Of a DNA stretch of 28,948 nt, positions 1 to 6,483 are shown in pieces. Source of the DNA: a virus; IMG/VR virus record IMGVR_UViG_3300031952_000104, positions 1-28,948 of that record. One strand, given 5' to 3'. The notes under the pieces were generated by a model. It was not told the DNA's origin. It did no database searches and saw nothing but the letters and a program-made list of their open reading frames with translations. The position numbers and the translations under genes were made by a program. Position 1 is the first letter of the stretch, and each line of letters begins with the position of its first letter.

Positions 1-2
1 CT

Positions 3-647
3 ATCGAAAGGTCTTTGCCTCTTCTCACTCCAGAGTCGCAAGACCTGGCGCAATCTGAATTGGAACAGTGCCTGGCGCTACGTTCGGAAAAGATTGATCG
101 TCTTTACTACGCATGGGCGCACCACGAAGATGCAATAGAACGTGCCAAGAAAGAACAAGAGCTTCTTGCAGCAGCAAGGAAACACCATGAATCTCAAGTC
201 ACACAGATCAAAGCACTGATCAACTGGCTGAGGAGGTCAGCACCTATTGATGACAACAAGATCAAAGGTAAAGACTATGAGTTTACCTTAAGCAAAAAGA
301 AAACACCTACAGTACTAGTTTCTTCTGAGGTCCAAGATTGGACGGAAGAAGAGCAACAGAAATACTGTATTATCGAAACAGTTACTACAACCAAACATAC
401 TGTGGTAACTTCAATTGATGGGAAGATTCTTGAAGAAGATACCAAACCATCGATTAAGACTGAAACCATCCCTAATCTCAATGCCCTCCTCAATGCTTAT
501 CAAGAAGGACAACACATCCCATCCGGTGTCAAGATCCAGCAAGACTACAACATCAGGAGAGCGCGAATCTTGGTCAAGCGATCAGTGGAGTTATCTCCAT
601 CCGCATATCCAAGCGAGTTTCTACCAGAACCTGATCCCGCCTGCTGA
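3..647 (+). CDS. Gp157-like phage protein, 5' end outside window
   Basis: The frame is open to the window edge; the first possible start inside is a TTG at 15, so the gene is probably truncated at its 5' end. The order of parts matches the phage Gp157 family: a charged helical N-terminal half (about residues 10-75) with Leu/Glu/Lys spacing of a coiled coil, then a conserved-looking stretch around KIKGKDYEFTLSKKKTP, then a C-terminal part ending near SGVKIQQDYNIRRARI. Gp157 proteins are phage early proteins linked in streptococcal phages to phage resistance; the biochemical role is not established. The last 25 or so residues are Pro/Ser-rich and look like an out-of-frame tail overlapping the next gene, so the true C-terminus or a frameshift near 550-560 should be considered. 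Confidence 0.6.
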   Translation: MERSLPLLTPESQDLAQSELEQCLALRSEKIDRLYYAWAHHEDAIERAKKEQELLAAARKHHESQVTQIKALINWLRRSAPIDDNKIKGKDYEFTLSKKKTPTVLVSSEVQDWTEEEQQKYCIIETVTTTKHTVVTSIDGKILEEDTKPSIKTETIPNLNALLNAYQEGQHIPSGVKIQQDYNIRRARILVKRSVELSPSAYPSEFLPEPDPAC

Positions 648-888
648 CTTGGATGACGCACATATCTTGTGCCGTTGCCATGAGCAGGCCATTGCAGACT
701 TCCAGATGCAAATCGAAATGATTGAATTGGAACTTGCAATGCTCACTGATGATGGTGACGTGCTCCCATACAATGAGAGTAAAGCACAAGAGCTGGAAGA
801 GCGCAAGCTTAAGTTGATGACAGGCAAACGCTTTCAAACTAACGCACGTAATGCTTACTGGTATTACTTGATGAAAGCTAAAAACTGA
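493..888 (+). CDS. hypothetical protein, start uncertain, overlaps Gp157-like gene
   Basis: From about 550 to 888 this frame reads as a convincing protein, with SGERESWSSDQWSYL followed by helical segments and NARNAYWYYLMKAKN at the end. The problem is the start: there is no ATG, GTG or TTG close to that segment. The nearest upstream ATGs (481, 493) lie deep inside the Gp157-like gene and lack a ribosome binding site, and the residues they add look like a shadow frame. Either the gene begins inside its neighbour, or it is joined to it by a frameshift, or one base is wrong. I recognise no family. The coordinate 493 is a placeholder for the start; the stop at 888 is firm. Confidence 0.55.
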   Translation: MLIKKDNTSHPVSRSSKTTTSGERESWSSDQWSYLHPHIQASFYQNLIPPADLDDAHILCRCHEQAIADFQMQIEMIELELAMLTDDGDVLPYNESKAQELEERKLKLMTGKRFQTNARNAYWYYLMKAKN

Positions 889-921
889 TAGCTGTAAACT
901 TAAGTAAAGACAAAGGGTTCC

Positions 922-1185
922 ATGACTGAAGACAATCAGCTTATCAATTTGATTGCTGGTTTCACCAGTGGTGGAACTCCTTTACAAGCAACAGTAGGTA
1001 GTAAGGCTGAGTGGATGGTGACCATCTTGACAGCATCTATGCTGGCGAATGAAACGCTAGCAGCATCCATGGTGCCAGAAGAGATGGTAGATGCTGCCAT
1101 CAACTACATGAATGTGATACAAGAGCGCCTCTCGTACTACGAAGGTGCCAAGCTACATTCTCTTGAGCGTTTACTAAATAGCTAA
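922..1185 (+). CDS. hypothetical small phage protein
   Basis: An 87-residue protein with an AAAGGG Shine-Dalgarno-like sequence just before its ATG, 33 bases after the previous gene. It is Ala/Met/Leu-rich and mostly helical in appearance, with one moderately hydrophobic stretch (VTILTASMLANETLAASMV, about residues 33-51) too polar for a clear membrane span. No family was recognised. It continues the run of small same-strand genes at the left of the window, a layout typical of early phage genes. Confidence 0.65.
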   Translation: MTEDNQLINLIAGFTSGGTPLQATVGSKAEWMVTILTASMLANETLAASMVPEEMVDAAINYMNVIQERLSYYEGAKLHSLERLLNS

Positions 1186-1234
1186 CCAAGTCCAGGCATT
1201 GGTGCTAAGGTACCTATGTTCTTCTTTTCCGATA

Positions 1235-1435
1235 ATGGAACCGATTCCCACTCCAACCATCACAGTTTCTTTTGCAATCGATCTTGAATTAAAGTACGAT
1301 CCCTTTAAAGGCAAGTCTCCCGTGCAGTTTGCTGCCTTGGTAGAAGATGATTTACATGATGCATTAATGGACTTTCGTCCTGAAACCCTTAGCGCATACA
1401 CCTCAATCACCGCAATCAACGAAGACAATGTCTGA
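1235..1435 (+). CDS. hypothetical small phage protein
   Basis: The ATG at 1235 gives a 66-residue acidic protein beginning MEPIPTPTITVSF. A longer version from a TTG at 1199 adds residues that look non-coding, so the ATG is preferred. Its 3' end overlaps the next gene by 8 bases, which suggests translational coupling. Sequence such as FAIDLELKYDPFKGKSPVQF suggests a small alternating strand/helix fold. The wording FKGKSPVQFA is reminiscent of small conserved cyanophage proteins, but I cannot name a family. Confidence 0.6.
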   Translation: MEPIPTPTITVSFAIDLELKYDPFKGKSPVQFAALVEDDLHDALMDFRPETLSAYTSITAINEDNV

Positions 1436-1670
1436 TCACAACCAAGGCAGCACTCTATTTAATTGGGATGTAAAAAAAGAGCAGCGCAAAGCTGACTTTA
1501 TGGAACATCTTTTTGACGTGTACAGGCCAAGTAACAATTGCTACACAGGGTTGTGGCAAAAGTTTTGCATGGGTGAAGCTGGTGAGTACTGCAAAAACAT
1601 GTATTACGAACAGCTAGAAGCAATACAAAACTACTTGGAAACAATCAAAGCTAAGGAAACAAATGAGTGA
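1428..1670 (+). CDS. hypothetical small phage protein
   Basis: An 80-residue protein rich in aromatic and charged residues (for example VYRPSNNCYTGLWQKFC and EYCKNMYYEQLEAIQNYL). It overlaps the previous gene by 8 bases and the following Zn-finger gene by 8 bases, so the three genes are probably translated from one transcript. Three cysteines are present but do not form a CxxC pair. No family was recognised. Confidence 0.65.
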   Translation: MSDHNQGSTLFNWDVKKEQRKADFMEHLFDVYRPSNNCYTGLWQKFCMGEAGEYCKNMYYEQLEAIQNYLETIKAKETNE

Positions 1671-1902
1671 AGAAACCAATAAATCTCAACGTCCTAACTG
1701 GATATGCGATCCGTGTGGGCAACTATACGGCAGGTGGTACCAGGGGAATTACAGCGGCCCATTAAAGCATTGTGCTACGTATCACAAAGGCACATGCGAT
1801 ATCTGTTTAGACAAAACATCAGTTACAGAACCGCGGGACTATGGTCACGTGGTTCGTGATTGGAAATACAGATACGAGGTAGATAGTAAGCGAAGCCAGT
1901 AA
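1663..1902 (+). CDS. small zinc-finger-like phage protein
   Basis: A 79-residue protein with an AAGGA ribosome binding site before its ATG. It carries a CDPCG pair near the start, then CATYHKGTCDIC, then VTEPRDYGHV. Two Cys pairs with an intervening His are consistent with a single zinc ribbon-like finger, and the VTEPRDYGH signature resembles a widespread small phage family of unknown role. I infer zinc binding; DNA, RNA or protein binding cannot be separated from sequence alone. It is the last gene of the leftmost + strand run and converges on the gene ending at 1907. Confidence 0.65.
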   Translation: MSEETNKSQRPNWICDPCGQLYGRWYQGNYSGPLKHCATYHKGTCDICLDKTSVTEPRDYGHVVRDWKYRYEVDSKRSQ

Positions 1903-1906
1903 ATAT

Positions 1907-2251
1907 TTAATTGCCAGCAGCAATTGAAAACAATACTGTTGCTGCTGTGCCACCTGATTCAGAAACAAAAATAGGTTGAATATACTTTACAGGATGATTA
2001 GTTATGTTGTAATGAAAAGTTCCGTTTGCAGTAATAGTCTGGTTAGCAATTATCTTTGACCAGTTTGTACCATCAATTGAACCGTTTAACGCCACAACCA
2101 CGTTAGTGTTAATGTCTGCTACCGTAGCAAACAAACTAAAGTTCTTTGAGACAATAGAAGGCGGCAAGTAAACAGATGTGGACTCGCCAGAAGCAGGCGC
2201 TGATAATACAGGATAATTATTGAAAAGAATATCTGGAGGACGTACTGACAT
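1907..2251 (-). CDS. putative virion-associated beta-rich protein
   Basis: A 114-residue protein dominated by Ser, Thr, Ala, Val and Asn in alternating beta-strand patterns, including NVVVALNGSIDGTNWSKI. The phrase GSIDGTNW is common in small phage and bacterial beta-sandwich proteins, and cyanophage structural proteins often have this make-up. There is no signal peptide or membrane segment. It lies alone on the minus strand between a convergent and a divergent neighbour. Assignment as a virion or decoration protein is inference from composition only. Confidence 0.6.
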   Translation of the reverse strand: MSVRPPDILFNNYPVLSAPASGESTSVYLPPSIVSKNFSLFATVADINTNVVVALNGSIDGTNWSKIIANQTITANGTFHYNITNHPVKYIQPIFVSESGGTAATVLFSIAAGN

Positions 2252-2342
2252 GTTTTTGTTTTTTCTGTTTTAATTTTACTGCATAAAACTATAGCCAACT
2301 TTCAATCAACTTCTGATAAACTAGAAGTATTGATACGGCGTT
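2252..2342. promoter_or_regulatory. divergent intergenic promoter region
   Basis: About 90 AT-rich bases separate two genes that point away from each other (starts at 2251 minus and 2343 plus), so promoters for both should lie here. On the minus strand CTATAGTTTTAT resembles a -10 element. On the plus strand a short hairpin (CTTCT and AGAAG around 2310-2328) precedes the start. No strong Shine-Dalgarno sequence is visible for the + gene. Confidence 0.35.
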
Positions 2343-2900
2343 ATGTACACAGCATATCCAACGCAACCACCCCAGATGGGGGTAGGGGTACCCCAGGTTG
2401 GGGTGGTGCCAGAACAACAAGCCAAACCTAAAGCACCAGCTAAATCAAAAGAGAATGATATTGGTAGTTTTATCCAGCAGTTGATTGGCCTTGCTTCTTA
2501 TGTTCATCAGTTGCAAATGCAAGCACATCTAATGCACTTTAATTATGAAGCTGGTAATTTTTTGGGTGTACATAAATTTCTTGGCAAGCAATATGAAAAA
2601 CACCAAGAGCAGTTTGACAAGATCGGTGAGTTTATCCGATCAATGGACTACTATCTTCCCATGTGTCATAACGGGTTGATGAGTGCCAGTCCTGAGTTTA
2701 AACATTCAACTTCTTACAAAGCAAGTGAAATGCTTGGTGTGTATTACAAGAACCTTGAAGAGCTTGGTATGAAAACCAAAAAAATAGAAGCAATATCAGC
2801 TAAGGTTCATGCTCTTGATATTCAAAACTACATGGCTGAGTTGTGCGGTGATGCATTTAAAGATGCCTGGATGGTTAAGGCGACTATGCGGAATGGCTGA
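2343..2900 (+). CDS. Dps/ferritin-like protein
   Basis: A 185-residue protein. Residues 1-40 are a Pro/Gln/Lys-rich extension; from about 43 it is all helical. The segment from AHLMHFNYEAGNF through VHKFLGKQYEKHQEQFDKIGEFIR follows the Dps pattern in which HWN...H...YE...D.IAERIR supplies the di-iron ferroxidase ligands: His, His, Asp and Glu are present at matching spacing, with Trp replaced by Met/Phe. Dps proteins store iron, detoxify peroxide and may compact DNA as 12-mers. The stop overlaps the start of the next gene (TGATG), so the two are coupled. A phage copy could protect DNA during infection or be packaged. A ferritin-like fold without ferroxidase activity is the main alternative. 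Confidence 0.62.
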   Translation: MYTAYPTQPPQMGVGVPQVGVVPEQQAKPKAPAKSKENDIGSFIQQLIGLASYVHQLQMQAHLMHFNYEAGNFLGVHKFLGKQYEKHQEQFDKIGEFIRSMDYYLPMCHNGLMSASPEFKHSTSYKASEMLGVYYKNLEELGMKTKKIEAISAKVHALDIQNYMAELCGDAFKDAWMVKATMRNG

Positions 2901-3769
2901 TGGGAGATTTTTTTCAACAATTTTTAAATACAGCAAGAGCTAAATACAAAGAAGCTGATAGGGCTACGGGTGGTTGGCTGCCAGGGGGCGGTGTTGCGTC
3001 TCCTTTAACGCGGGCAAAACAAGAAGGAGAACGTAATATGGCTAATCAAATCCGGCAACAATCTCAACAATATGTAGGTCAACCAGGGCGACTTGCTGGA
3101 AAAGGACAACTTTTAAATGTCATTATGGCAGCTACACAAGCAGGTGCTAACCCCGTTTTGGTTGCGTTAGGTAATCCAAAAGCAGTTAAAAAAGTAAGTC
3201 AATATTATGCGCAGTATCCAGAAATGCAAAATGAATTTGATCTTAATACAAATATGTTTTTGCGTTATCTTTCAGGTACTGGAGCAGACGGTTTAAAGAT
3301 TGCACCTGAAGTTGGTAAGCAGCTTTATTCAGATATTCAACAACGAGAAAAACAGTTCCTTGACCCGCAATATCGAGAGTCTGTAATTAATAACCCAGAT
3401 AACTATTCATATGTAAAACAAAATCTTCTTGCGGGGCGCACTCCTGTTCTTTACGGAGGTGTTTCAGATGCTGTTGCTCCGAATAAAGCTCTATTGCCTA
3501 CAGATAAAGGTGAACGTTGGCAACTTGACAAATCACTGGGTAGTTATTGGGCTGAACCAACTGATAATGGTTATTTAATTAAAGATGAACTTTATAACTT
3601 TAGTTATGCACCAGTAAATAAAGGAGGTATTAAAGGCGCATCATCTGGTGTTTCTATTCCTGGAAGTGTTGCGGATTTAGGACGCAACCTTGTAAGACAA
3701 GGATTTGGCAATCCTTTTACATACACTTTAAATGTAAATCCATCTGGCGCTGTAAAAGCTTATCCCTAA
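2900..3769 (+). CDS. hypothetical protein, possible virion or ejected protein
   Basis: A 289-residue protein whose ATG overlaps the stop of the Dps-like gene by one base. The N-terminal half is Gln/Ala/Gly-rich with helical character (for example RNMANQIRQQSQQYVGQPG). The C-terminal part (about 195-289) has DNGYLIKDELYNFSYAPVNK and then ADLGRNLVRQGFGNPFTYTLNV, a compact domain that reads like a conserved module of larger phage structural proteins. No catalytic motif was seen. The gene is clearly more AT-rich than the minus-strand genes further right. Pairing with a Dps-like protein makes an internal virion protein plausible, but this is speculation. Confidence 0.55.
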   Translation: MGDFFQQFLNTARAKYKEADRATGGWLPGGGVASPLTRAKQEGERNMANQIRQQSQQYVGQPGRLAGKGQLLNVIMAATQAGANPVLVALGNPKAVKKVSQYYAQYPEMQNEFDLNTNMFLRYLSGTGADGLKIAPEVGKQLYSDIQQREKQFLDPQYRESVINNPDNYSYVKQNLLAGRTPVLYGGVSDAVAPNKALLPTDKGERWQLDKSLGSYWAEPTDNGYLIKDELYNFSYAPVNKGGIKGASSGVSIPGSVADLGRNLVRQGFGNPFTYTLNVNPSGAVKAYP

Positions 3770-4014
3770 GCATTCCAGTGTTCAAGCCTATGACAGTTGC
3801 AGCATAAAGGAATACATTTAACTATCTCTTCCTCAATGCGTTTCCATGCGTAGCCATGGTTAACCATGTTGGAAATGTTATGGTCTTTATCTCCCAGGTG
3901 GTGGAACTCTAGGATGCGGTGATCATCTATGCTGCAGTGCTGACATTTTAAAGTCTTTTTGTACTCAAGGAATTTTTTTCGATGTGCATCGATACGTTGT
4001 TTGACTTTTGACAA
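3766..4014 (-). CDS. small HNH endonuclease
   Basis: An 82-residue protein with a basic helical start, CQHCSIDDHRILEFHHLG in the middle and CIPLCCNCHRLEH at the end. CxxC, DH..EFHH and CxxCH are the signature of the HNH family: the first His pair forms the metal-dependent nuclease centre and the Cys pairs hold a structural zinc. Free-standing small HNH proteins in phages act as homing endonucleases or in DNA packaging. It is a lone minus-strand gene converging on the 289-residue gene with 4 shared bases, a typical insertion of a homing endonuclease between genes. Confidence 0.78.
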   Translation of the reverse strand: MSKVKQRIDAHRKKFLEYKKTLKCQHCSIDDHRILEFHHLGDKDHNISNMVNHGYAWKRIEEEIVKCIPLCCNCHRLEHWNA

Positions 4015-4043
4015 CTATTCCAATGTCTTACTACGCCACTAAT

Positions 4044-4051
4044 TATAAATA
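4044..4051 (+). promoter_or_regulatory. TATAAATA box, T4-like late promoter candidate
   Basis: An exact TATAAATA lies in the 174-base gap between two minus-strand genes, pointing to the + strand. T4-like phages and T4-like cyanophages use this octamer for late transcription. It is followed 37 bases later by a 10-bp hairpin (4089-4112), so a short untranslated RNA is possible. The sequence is AT-rich and the match may be chance. Confidence 0.25.
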
Positions 4052-4088
4052 AATTTGTTACGAAGTAGGTTATGAAAACTATTGTTCG

Positions 4089-4112
4089 GATGCTGGCCAC
4101 TAGGTCGGCATC
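4089..4112 (+). terminator. 10-bp hairpin with short T tract
   Basis: GATGCTGGCC and GGTCGGCATC pair over 10 bp (two G-T pairs) around the loop ACTA, followed on the + strand by TTTATCTT. The stem is strong but the T tract is short, so this may be a terminator or simply a structured RNA. The rest of the gap 4015-4188 shows no convincing gene. Confidence 0.35.
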
Positions 4113-4188
4113 TTTATCTTGGTGTGATGCCTTCTCTCCTAATGCAAGAGCCCATAGCTTCCAAAGTTTTGCTGCATTCAGCATTCGA

Positions 4189-5488: not shown

Positions 5489-6286
5489 ATGTTAGGTGCA
5501 ATAAAAAATATTTTAAAACAAAAACAACCTGTTCGGCCAGGGGTAAGCCCAGAGGAAGTACGTGCAATGGCTGCCGAAGCGGCTAGGCGAGCACAGCAAA
5601 GAATAGGAGGTGGATAATTTGGACAAGTATATGAAGCATCTCCTGGTTTTGTAGTTAAAAAAATCGCCTTAGAAAATAAACAAAACTTATTAAATGAAAT
5701 TAATACGCAAGCAAGAGCGGCAGAATTAGGACTTGCGCTTAAAATTCAAAGCGCTTCTTTAGATCTCCCAAAAATTGGAGATAGGGTTATTCCTTTAGAG
5801 TCTGGTCCAAACCCTAAAATGCGTGGAGATATTGTGATGCAAGACTTAAGAGAAAACTATAATCAAGCAGAAGTATTTACAAACCAACAACAGCTAGATC
5901 AAGCAAAGCAAATGGCCAGGCTTAGTTTAAATAATATCGGCTTAGGTGATCGTCATAGCGGGAATATCATGTTTAATAAAACAACAGGAAGGCCTATACA
6001 ATTAGATTTTGGCGGAACTTCAATACTTAAAAATGATAGACAAAAAGCATCTAATTTATCTTTATCAGTAGCACAGGGTTTGCATGCTGCAGGATTAAAA
6101 GAAGAAGCTTTAATATTTAGAGGGACTGTTCAAGATCTTTTATATACAGATCCTGCCATGGCATTAGATGTTGCCAAGCAAGGTTTATCAAGATTACAAA
6201 AAATTAAAGCACCTATTACACCTGATAAATACAGTTATGCAACTGTTGACAATCCACAAGATTTCATGTCTTTTCTGGGTAATTAA
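5489..6286 (+). pseudogene. protein-kinase-like gene interrupted by in-frame TAA
   Basis: One frame runs from the ATG at 5489 to a TAA at 6286 and is broken by a single TAA at 5615-5617 (codon 43). Across the break the translation reads RIGGG, stop, FGQVYEASPGFVVKKIA, a textbook kinase glycine loop followed by the VAIK-type Lys. A Glu in LLNEINTQ fits the alpha-C helix, GDRHSGNIMF (5945-5974) fits the catalytic loop in the PI3K/atypical style, and LDFGG (DFG at 6005-6013) fits the metal-binding motif. Without the stop the product would be about 265 residues, a minimal kinase. Initiation at the internal ATG 5819 would drop the ATP-binding lobe. Other genes here end normally at TAA, so general recoding is unlikely. 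It is either a recent nonsense mutation or stop readthrough. The region is AT-rich and flanked by tRNA-like sequences, which suggests acquired DNA. Confidence 0.72.
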
Positions 6287-6289
6287 AAA

Positions 6290-6361
6290 TCAACTGTACT
6301 GGAATCGAACCAGCTATCTAACTCCCTTGTCGGGGTGTCCTTACCAATGGACTACCAGTTG
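6290..6361 (-). tRNA. tRNA or tRNA-like sequence, anticodon arm irregular
   Basis: The minus strand shows an acceptor stem CAACTGG/ACAGTTG (6 of 7 pairs), TA, a perfect D arm (GTCC, ATTGGTAA, GGAC), and a T arm GCTGG TTCGATT CCAGT (last pair G-U), with a total of 72 bases including the discriminator A. This is strongly tRNA. The anticodon region CCCCGACAAGGGAG gives only a 3-bp stem and lacks the usual U33, so the identity is unclear (GAC, Val, is one reading). It lies 3 bases after the interrupted kinase gene on the opposite strand. CCA is not encoded. Confidence 0.55.
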
Positions 6362-6483
6362 AGCGACCCACAGATTTGAACATTAGTAGCGCGAGGCTTG
6401 CCAAGAGGCTTAGTGGGTGTTGCTGTATGTTGCCAAGTTGCAAAACCTGGCTGGCTTCAGGGCTTTACATACTAAAACATCAT
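6362..6483. other. intergenic stretch without a gene
   Basis: No supported gene lies between the tRNA-like sequence and the terminator. The + strand contains ACCCAC and GTGGGT about 40 bases apart and a GATTTGAAC block (minus GTTCAAATC, the T-arm consensus), which may be a relic of a further tRNA, but no cloverleaf could be formed. Confidence 0.3.

What the first reader, a model, noticed from the sequence alone, without database searches (positions are those of the whole stretch)
5489..6286. Kinase gene broken by one in-frame TAA inside its glycine loop
Reading through codon 43 gives RIGGG-X-FGQVYEASPGFVVKK, then a catalytic loop GDRHSGNIMF and LDFGG. All kinase motifs on both sides of the stop are intact and nothing else is damaged. 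So either the mutation is very recent, or the stop is read through. CAA (Gln), AAA or GAA to TAA would explain a point mutation. A phage kinase with a readthrough-controlled active form would be novel.
Basis: partly seen in the sequence, partly recalled or inferred. Interest (0 to 1): 0.82.

Follow-up and report, generated by a model that had tools for sequence, protein, structure and literature searches.

The report
Broken kinase gene in freshwater cyanophage
A virus of freshwater cyanobacteria carries a protein-kinase gene cut short by one early stop signal; sister viruses hold intact, otherwise damaged, mostly deleted or no copies of it, so this looks like an optional gene being lost rather than a new kind of gene control.

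Summary
In detail: codon 43 of the frame 5489-6286 (+) is TAA (5615-5617), and it is the only stop before the end. Seven other copies were found in viral contigs. Six are intact single frames with a sense codon there (Q, M or A), so the two halves are one gene. The protein is an atypical protein kinase (motifs; predicted fold, VIA Z about 12 to DAPK1/MK2).

Readthrough is not supported. The stop is not conserved, it is UAA followed by U, no UUA-anticodon tRNA lies in the window, and the following RNA folds no better than shuffles. Dispensability is visible in relatives: L130 has a frameshift about 5 codons upstream, L005 keeps only the last 36 codons, and phage S-EIV1 lacks the gene at the same site. 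The window lineage has dN/dS 0.20 against 0.056 elsewhere (2dlnL 9.9), so constraint relaxed late on its branch.

Best reading: a recently broken accessory phage kinase (about 0.75). A base-call or assembly error cannot be excluded without reads. The kinase family is unnamed but of a known kind. Of more interest nearby: an abiF-type antitoxin RNA motif with a tRNA-like domain, in cyanophages with no detectable AbiF gene.

The parts
5489..5617 (+). 5' fragment of the kinase gene: 42 sense codons and the premature TAA
   Evidence: N-terminal helix PEEVRAMAAEAA(K/R)RAQ shared with L129, L130, L135
5615..5617 (+). in-frame TAA at codon 43, inside the glycine loop (GGG-*-FGQVY); next base T
   Evidence: homologues have Q, Q, Q, M, Q, A, A at this column
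5618..6286 (+). rest of the kinase frame to the natural TAA: K57 (5657-5659), E70 (5696-5698), GDRHSGN catalytic loop (5945-5965), DFG (6005-6013)
   Evidence: invariant columns; Pfam PF00454 31.6 bits
6289..6362 (-). tRNA-like RNA whose 3' end abuts the kinase stop codon; no normal anticodon arm
   Evidence: ARAGORN tRNA-???; Rfam tRNA-Sec 27.2 bits, below threshold; conserved in L005, L129, L130, S-EIV1, S-RIM8, S-PM2
6366..6417 (-). abiF-RNA-like hairpin directly upstream of the tRNA-like domain
   Evidence: Rfam RF03085 28.4 bits, below the curated 37 (E 6.4e-5); the copy in L129 reaches 49.7 bits

Best explanation
An accessory protein-kinase gene of an S-EIV1-like freshwater cyanophage was inactivated by a single nonsense mutation. 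The ribosome makes a 42-residue stub that ends inside the glycine loop and lacks the whole catalytic domain. No ATG, GTG or TTG in frame restarts translation until 5819, beyond the ATP-binding Lys and Glu, so no active kinase is made. Shown: the stop, the single-gene nature, the intact homologues, the kinase fold and motifs, the presence/absence/decay pattern in relatives, and the relaxed constraint. Inferred: that the intact kinase phosphorylates host or phage proteins during infection, as T7 gp0.7 does (own knowledge), and that the mutation is in the phage genome and not only in the assembly.
For: Intact homologues: L129 272 aa, L133 276 aa, L135 279 aa, L141 and L143, L151, all with a sense codon at the column. 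Independent losses: L130 lacks one base in an A-run just upstream of the glycine loop; L005 keeps only the last 36 codons; S-EIV1 has the two flanking tRNA-like elements side by side with no kinase between them. Constraint: omega 0.20 on the window branch against 0.056 elsewhere, 2dlnL 9.9, while omega = 1 for the whole branch is rejected (2dlnL 7.3), which fits long function and late loss. The 36-codon tail differs from L005 by 4 silent and 1 amino-acid change. No other homology-covered gene of the window was seen with a break inside its own frame. Fold: AF2 pLDDT 74, VIA Z 12.1 to DAPK1, 11.9 to MK2.
Against: There is only one lesion and all catalytic residues remain, so the break could be so recent that it is polymorphic, or an error. 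The raised omega rests on 5 sequences with long, partly saturated branches, and a one-branch test can reflect other changes of constraint.
Confidence: 0.75

Rival explanations
1. Base-call or assembly error, or a minority variant in the consensus: the phage gene is intact.
For: A single substitution in a metagenome contig; all other kinase motifs intact; the overall dN/dS of the branch is below 1.
Against: The window-specific rise in dN/dS and the independent losses in relatives fit real decay; no other gene of the window was seen disrupted. Substitution errors are rare in well-covered short-read contigs (own knowledge).
Confidence: 0.16
2. Programmed readthrough: the UAA is leaky and a little full-length kinase is made.
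For: The frame is open on both sides and the branch omega is still below 1; the stop sits where readthrough would switch kinase activity on.
Against: The stop is not conserved in any of 7 homologues; UAA followed by U is an efficient terminator (own knowledge); no tRNA with a UUA anticodon in the window; the 83 nt after the stop fold no better than shuffles (z +1.0); constraint is looser on this branch, not equal.
Confidence: 0.04
3. The N-terminal peptide is kept for its own role and only the kinase domain is discarded: the breaks in the window (codon 43) and L130 (about codon 38) both fall just after the conserved helix.
For: The helix is among the most conserved stretches; two independent lesions lie about 5 codons apart in a 265-codon gene.
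Against: In codons 1-42 the window branch shows more, not fewer, amino-acid changes than background (2dlnL 8.2, few sites, unstable estimate); L141 and L143 have a shorter N-terminus; only two events, and the L130 lesion is in a homopolymer, a common spot for indels.
Confidence: 0.05

Closest known systems
Putative Ser/Thr kinases of cyanophages S-CBWM1 and S-TIM5
   Same: Phage-encoded kinases of cyanophages with the same fold by Foldseek
   Different: No detectable sequence relationship: tblastn of three family members finds nothing in 50,697 phage records
PI3/PI4-kinase (PF00454) and ABC1 (PF03109) atypical kinases
   Same: DRHxxN catalytic loop and DFG; the window protein passes PF00454's cut-off, aligned over residues 89-175 only
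   Different: Homologues fall below both cut-offs and the structure neighbours are Ser/Thr kinases, so this is motif resemblance
Accessory phage gene loss (pseudogenes, presence/absence)
   Same: Intact, frameshifted, truncated and absent copies in related phages
   Different: Nothing essential
Stop-codon readthrough or reassigned-stop phages (own knowledge)
   Same: In-frame stop with continuing homology
   Different: One gene only, stop not conserved, no suppressor tRNA in the window, the same codon TAA also ends this gene

Membership tests
Protein-kinase-like superfamily | Glycine loop GxGxxG | tested here: met
   G-x-G-x-(F/Y)-(G/S) in all 7 homologues; in the window the TAA lies inside it
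Protein-kinase-like superfamily | Beta3 Lys and alphaC Glu | tested here: met
   K57 and E70 invariant in A4
Protein-kinase-like superfamily | Catalytic loop Asp/Asn and DFG | tested here: met
   DRHxxN invariant; D-F-G in seven of eight copies, DWG in L151
Protein-kinase-like superfamily | Bilobal kinase fold | tested here: met
   AF2 of L129 with A4; VIA Z 12.1, 175 residues, 3.8 A to 3zxt_B
Protein-kinase-like superfamily | Phosphotransfer activity | not testable with these tools
   needs an assay
PI3/PI4 kinase (PF00454) | Score above the curated cut-off | tested here: inconclusive
   Window 31.6 vs 27.1 bits; L129, L133, L130 below it
Programmed readthrough | Stop conserved in homologues | tested here: not met
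   Sense codon in all 7 homologues
Programmed readthrough | Matching suppressor tRNA | tested here: inconclusive
   None in the 28.9-kb window; the rest of the phage genome is not held
Programmed readthrough | Stimulating structure 3' of the stop | tested here: not met
   z +1.0; pseudoknots not tested
Pseudogene | Disabling lesion with intact relatives | tested here: met
Pseudogene | Relaxed selection | tested here: met
   omega 0.20 vs 0.056, 2dlnL 9.9
Pseudogene | Lesion confirmed by reads | not testable with these tools
   no reads available

The most novel reading that the evidence does not exclude
A cyanophage kinase whose active form is made only by occasional recoding just before or in the glycine loop: readthrough of UAA in this phage, and -1 frameshifting at an in-phase A_AAA_AAA heptamer in L130, with the intact relatives being constitutive forms.
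Probability: 0.03. Interest if true: 0.8.

Novelty: new member of a known kind. Interest (0 to 1): 0.25.

Why it matters
It adds an undescribed kinase family to the accessory genes of freshwater cyanophages and shows it turning over by several independent losses at one site between two tRNA-like RNAs. For the scan, it shows that an interrupted frame with perfect motifs on both sides is best explained by looking for intact and otherwise-broken relatives. The neighbouring abiF-type RNA, in phages with no AbiF gene found, may deserve more attention than the kinase: it could be a phage decoy against a host RNA-antitoxin defence (untested).

Tried and rejected
Full-length single-sequence search of viral contigs found nothing; a sub-query with the catalytic motifs worked. 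Two searches of 84,980 prokaryote genomes found no relative, and none in 50,697 phage records. Alternative genetic code: rejected, since TAA also ends this gene. Internal restart: the next in-frame ATG/GTG/TTG is 5819, after the ATP-binding residues. An AGGAGGU Shine-Dalgarno-like run lies just before the TAA, but no start codon in this frame follows nearby and it encodes the glycine loop. A hairpin around the stop (5560-5680, z -1.8) was not pursued. Conserved programmed frameshifting: L129 and L133 lack the A-run of L130. First AF2 model with 4 sequences was poor (pLDDT 48) and was not used. One search also listed stops in wrong-frame or upstream-extension alignments; these were judged not to be broken genes by inspecting coordinates against the frame list, which is a judgement, not a test.

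Full report
What is there. The frame 5489-6286 (+) has 264 sense codons, a TAA at codon 43 (5615-5617) and a natural TAA at the end. The window is one virus record of 28,948 bases, and its DNA matches the Synechococcus phage S-EIV1 over 42% of the first 25 kb at 80% identity.

One gene, not two. The first full-length search found nothing, but a sub-query with the catalytic motifs found two relatives, and later scans more. L129 is an intact 272-residue frame, 69% identical from end to end across the stop. L133 (276 aa), L135 (279 aa), L141 (L142 is the same protein) and L143 and L151 are intact too.

What the protein is. K57, E70 and DRHxxN are invariant in the alignment; the DFG is kept in all but L151, which has DWG. 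AlphaFold2 on L129 with seven sequences gives pLDDT 74. Its closest solved structures are Ser/Thr kinases, VIA Z 12.1 to DAPK1 and 11.9 to MK2, and viral neighbours include kinases of cyanophages S-CBWM1 and S-TIM5. Pfam PI3_PI4_kinase is passed by the window protein but not by three homologues, so I file it as an atypical protein kinase without a named family. No relative was found in 50,697 phage records or 84,980 prokaryote genomes.

Dispensable gene. L130 is frameshifted: one base too few in an A-run just upstream of its glycine loop. L005, whose neighbouring gene is 97% identical to the window's, keeps only the last 36 codons, joined to a truncated upstream gene. In S-EIV1 the two tRNA-like elements that flank the kinase lie next to each other and no kinase is found in the genome. 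Counting the window, that is two broken copies, one remnant and one empty site against six intact copies.

Selection. A codon model on five sequences gives omega 0.20 on the window branch and 0.056 on the rest (2dlnL 9.9); values from about 0.1 to 0.55 fit, and 1.0 is rejected by 2dlnL 7.3. The branches of L129 and L130 show no rise. This fits a gene that worked for most of its history and lost constraint late. If a part of the branch ran at omega 1, about 15% of it would be enough (inference). In the 36-codon tail the window and L005 differ by 4 silent and 1 amino-acid change.

Readthrough. Nothing speaks for it beyond the open frame. The stop is not shared, the context is UAA-U, there is no UUA-anticodon tRNA in the window, and the RNA after the stop folds no better than shuffles. 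L130's run offers an in-phase A_AAA_AAA heptamer, the classic -1 slippery site, but L129 and L133 lack it, and a homopolymer is also where indels and assembly errors arise.

What cannot be decided. Without reads an error or a polymorphism at 5615-5617 stays possible (0.16). The raised omega favours real decay but rests on few, distant sequences.

Neighbourhood. The kinase lies tail to tail against a minus-strand RNA: an abiF-like hairpin (6417-6366; 28.4 bits, below the curated 37) followed by a tRNA-like domain (6362-6289). In L129 the abiF motif passes the threshold (49.7 bits). The tRNA-like part recurs, unannotated, in S-RIM8, S-PM2 and S-EIV1 with changing acceptor stems but a nearly fixed middle CCCGACAAGG that seems to form only a 3-bp, 5-nt hairpin (pairing read by eye). 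abiF RNA is the antitoxin of the AbiF system (PMC12373285) and was reported in cyanophage S-CREM1 (PMC9964418, 51.6 bits). No Abi_2 gene was found in the eight records searched (several are fragments).

Verdict. Observation confirmed; the gene is an accessory phage kinase most likely broken by a late nonsense mutation; readthrough not supported.

Noticed in passing
window 6417-6289 (-); L129 5612-5500 (-); L130 5586-5514 (-); L135 8909-8838 (-); L005 7096-7169 (+): abiF-RNA-type hairpin plus a tRNA-like domain without a normal anticodon arm, apparently one conserved RNA of cyanophages; no AbiF (Abi_2) gene found in the eight records searched, so possibly an orphan antitoxin-like decoy.
   Followed up: partly
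S-RIM8 (L003 1575-1502, -), S-PM2 (L004 1568-1496, -), S-CREM1 OP535465.1 9971-10028: The same tRNA-like element recurs in marine and estuarine cyanomyoviruses, in tRNA clusters of S-RIM8 and S-PM2, where ARAGORN calls it tRNA-??? with a 2-base anticodon.
   Followed up: partly
window about 5449-5376 (-); L130 about 4646-4566 (-); L002 about 13965-13896 (-): A second tRNA-like element upstream of the kinase: good T arm and, in L130, a full acceptor stem, but an odd anticodon region; not called by ARAGORN. Read by eye.
   Followed up: no
L130 4783-4792: A8 run with in-phase A_AAA_AAA heptamer where the kinase frame breaks; indel, error or -1 frameshift site.
   Followed up: partly
L002 13976-14000: S-EIV1's empty site reads cagcagATGTAATTAGaaatcaacc, which resembles the start and the last codons of the kinase joined; possibly a deletion scar, too short to be sure.
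   Followed up: no
window 6175-6363 vs L005: This stretch is 96% identical to L005 while window 1-4170 is 88% identical, which suggests a mosaic or recent recombination here.
   Followed up: no
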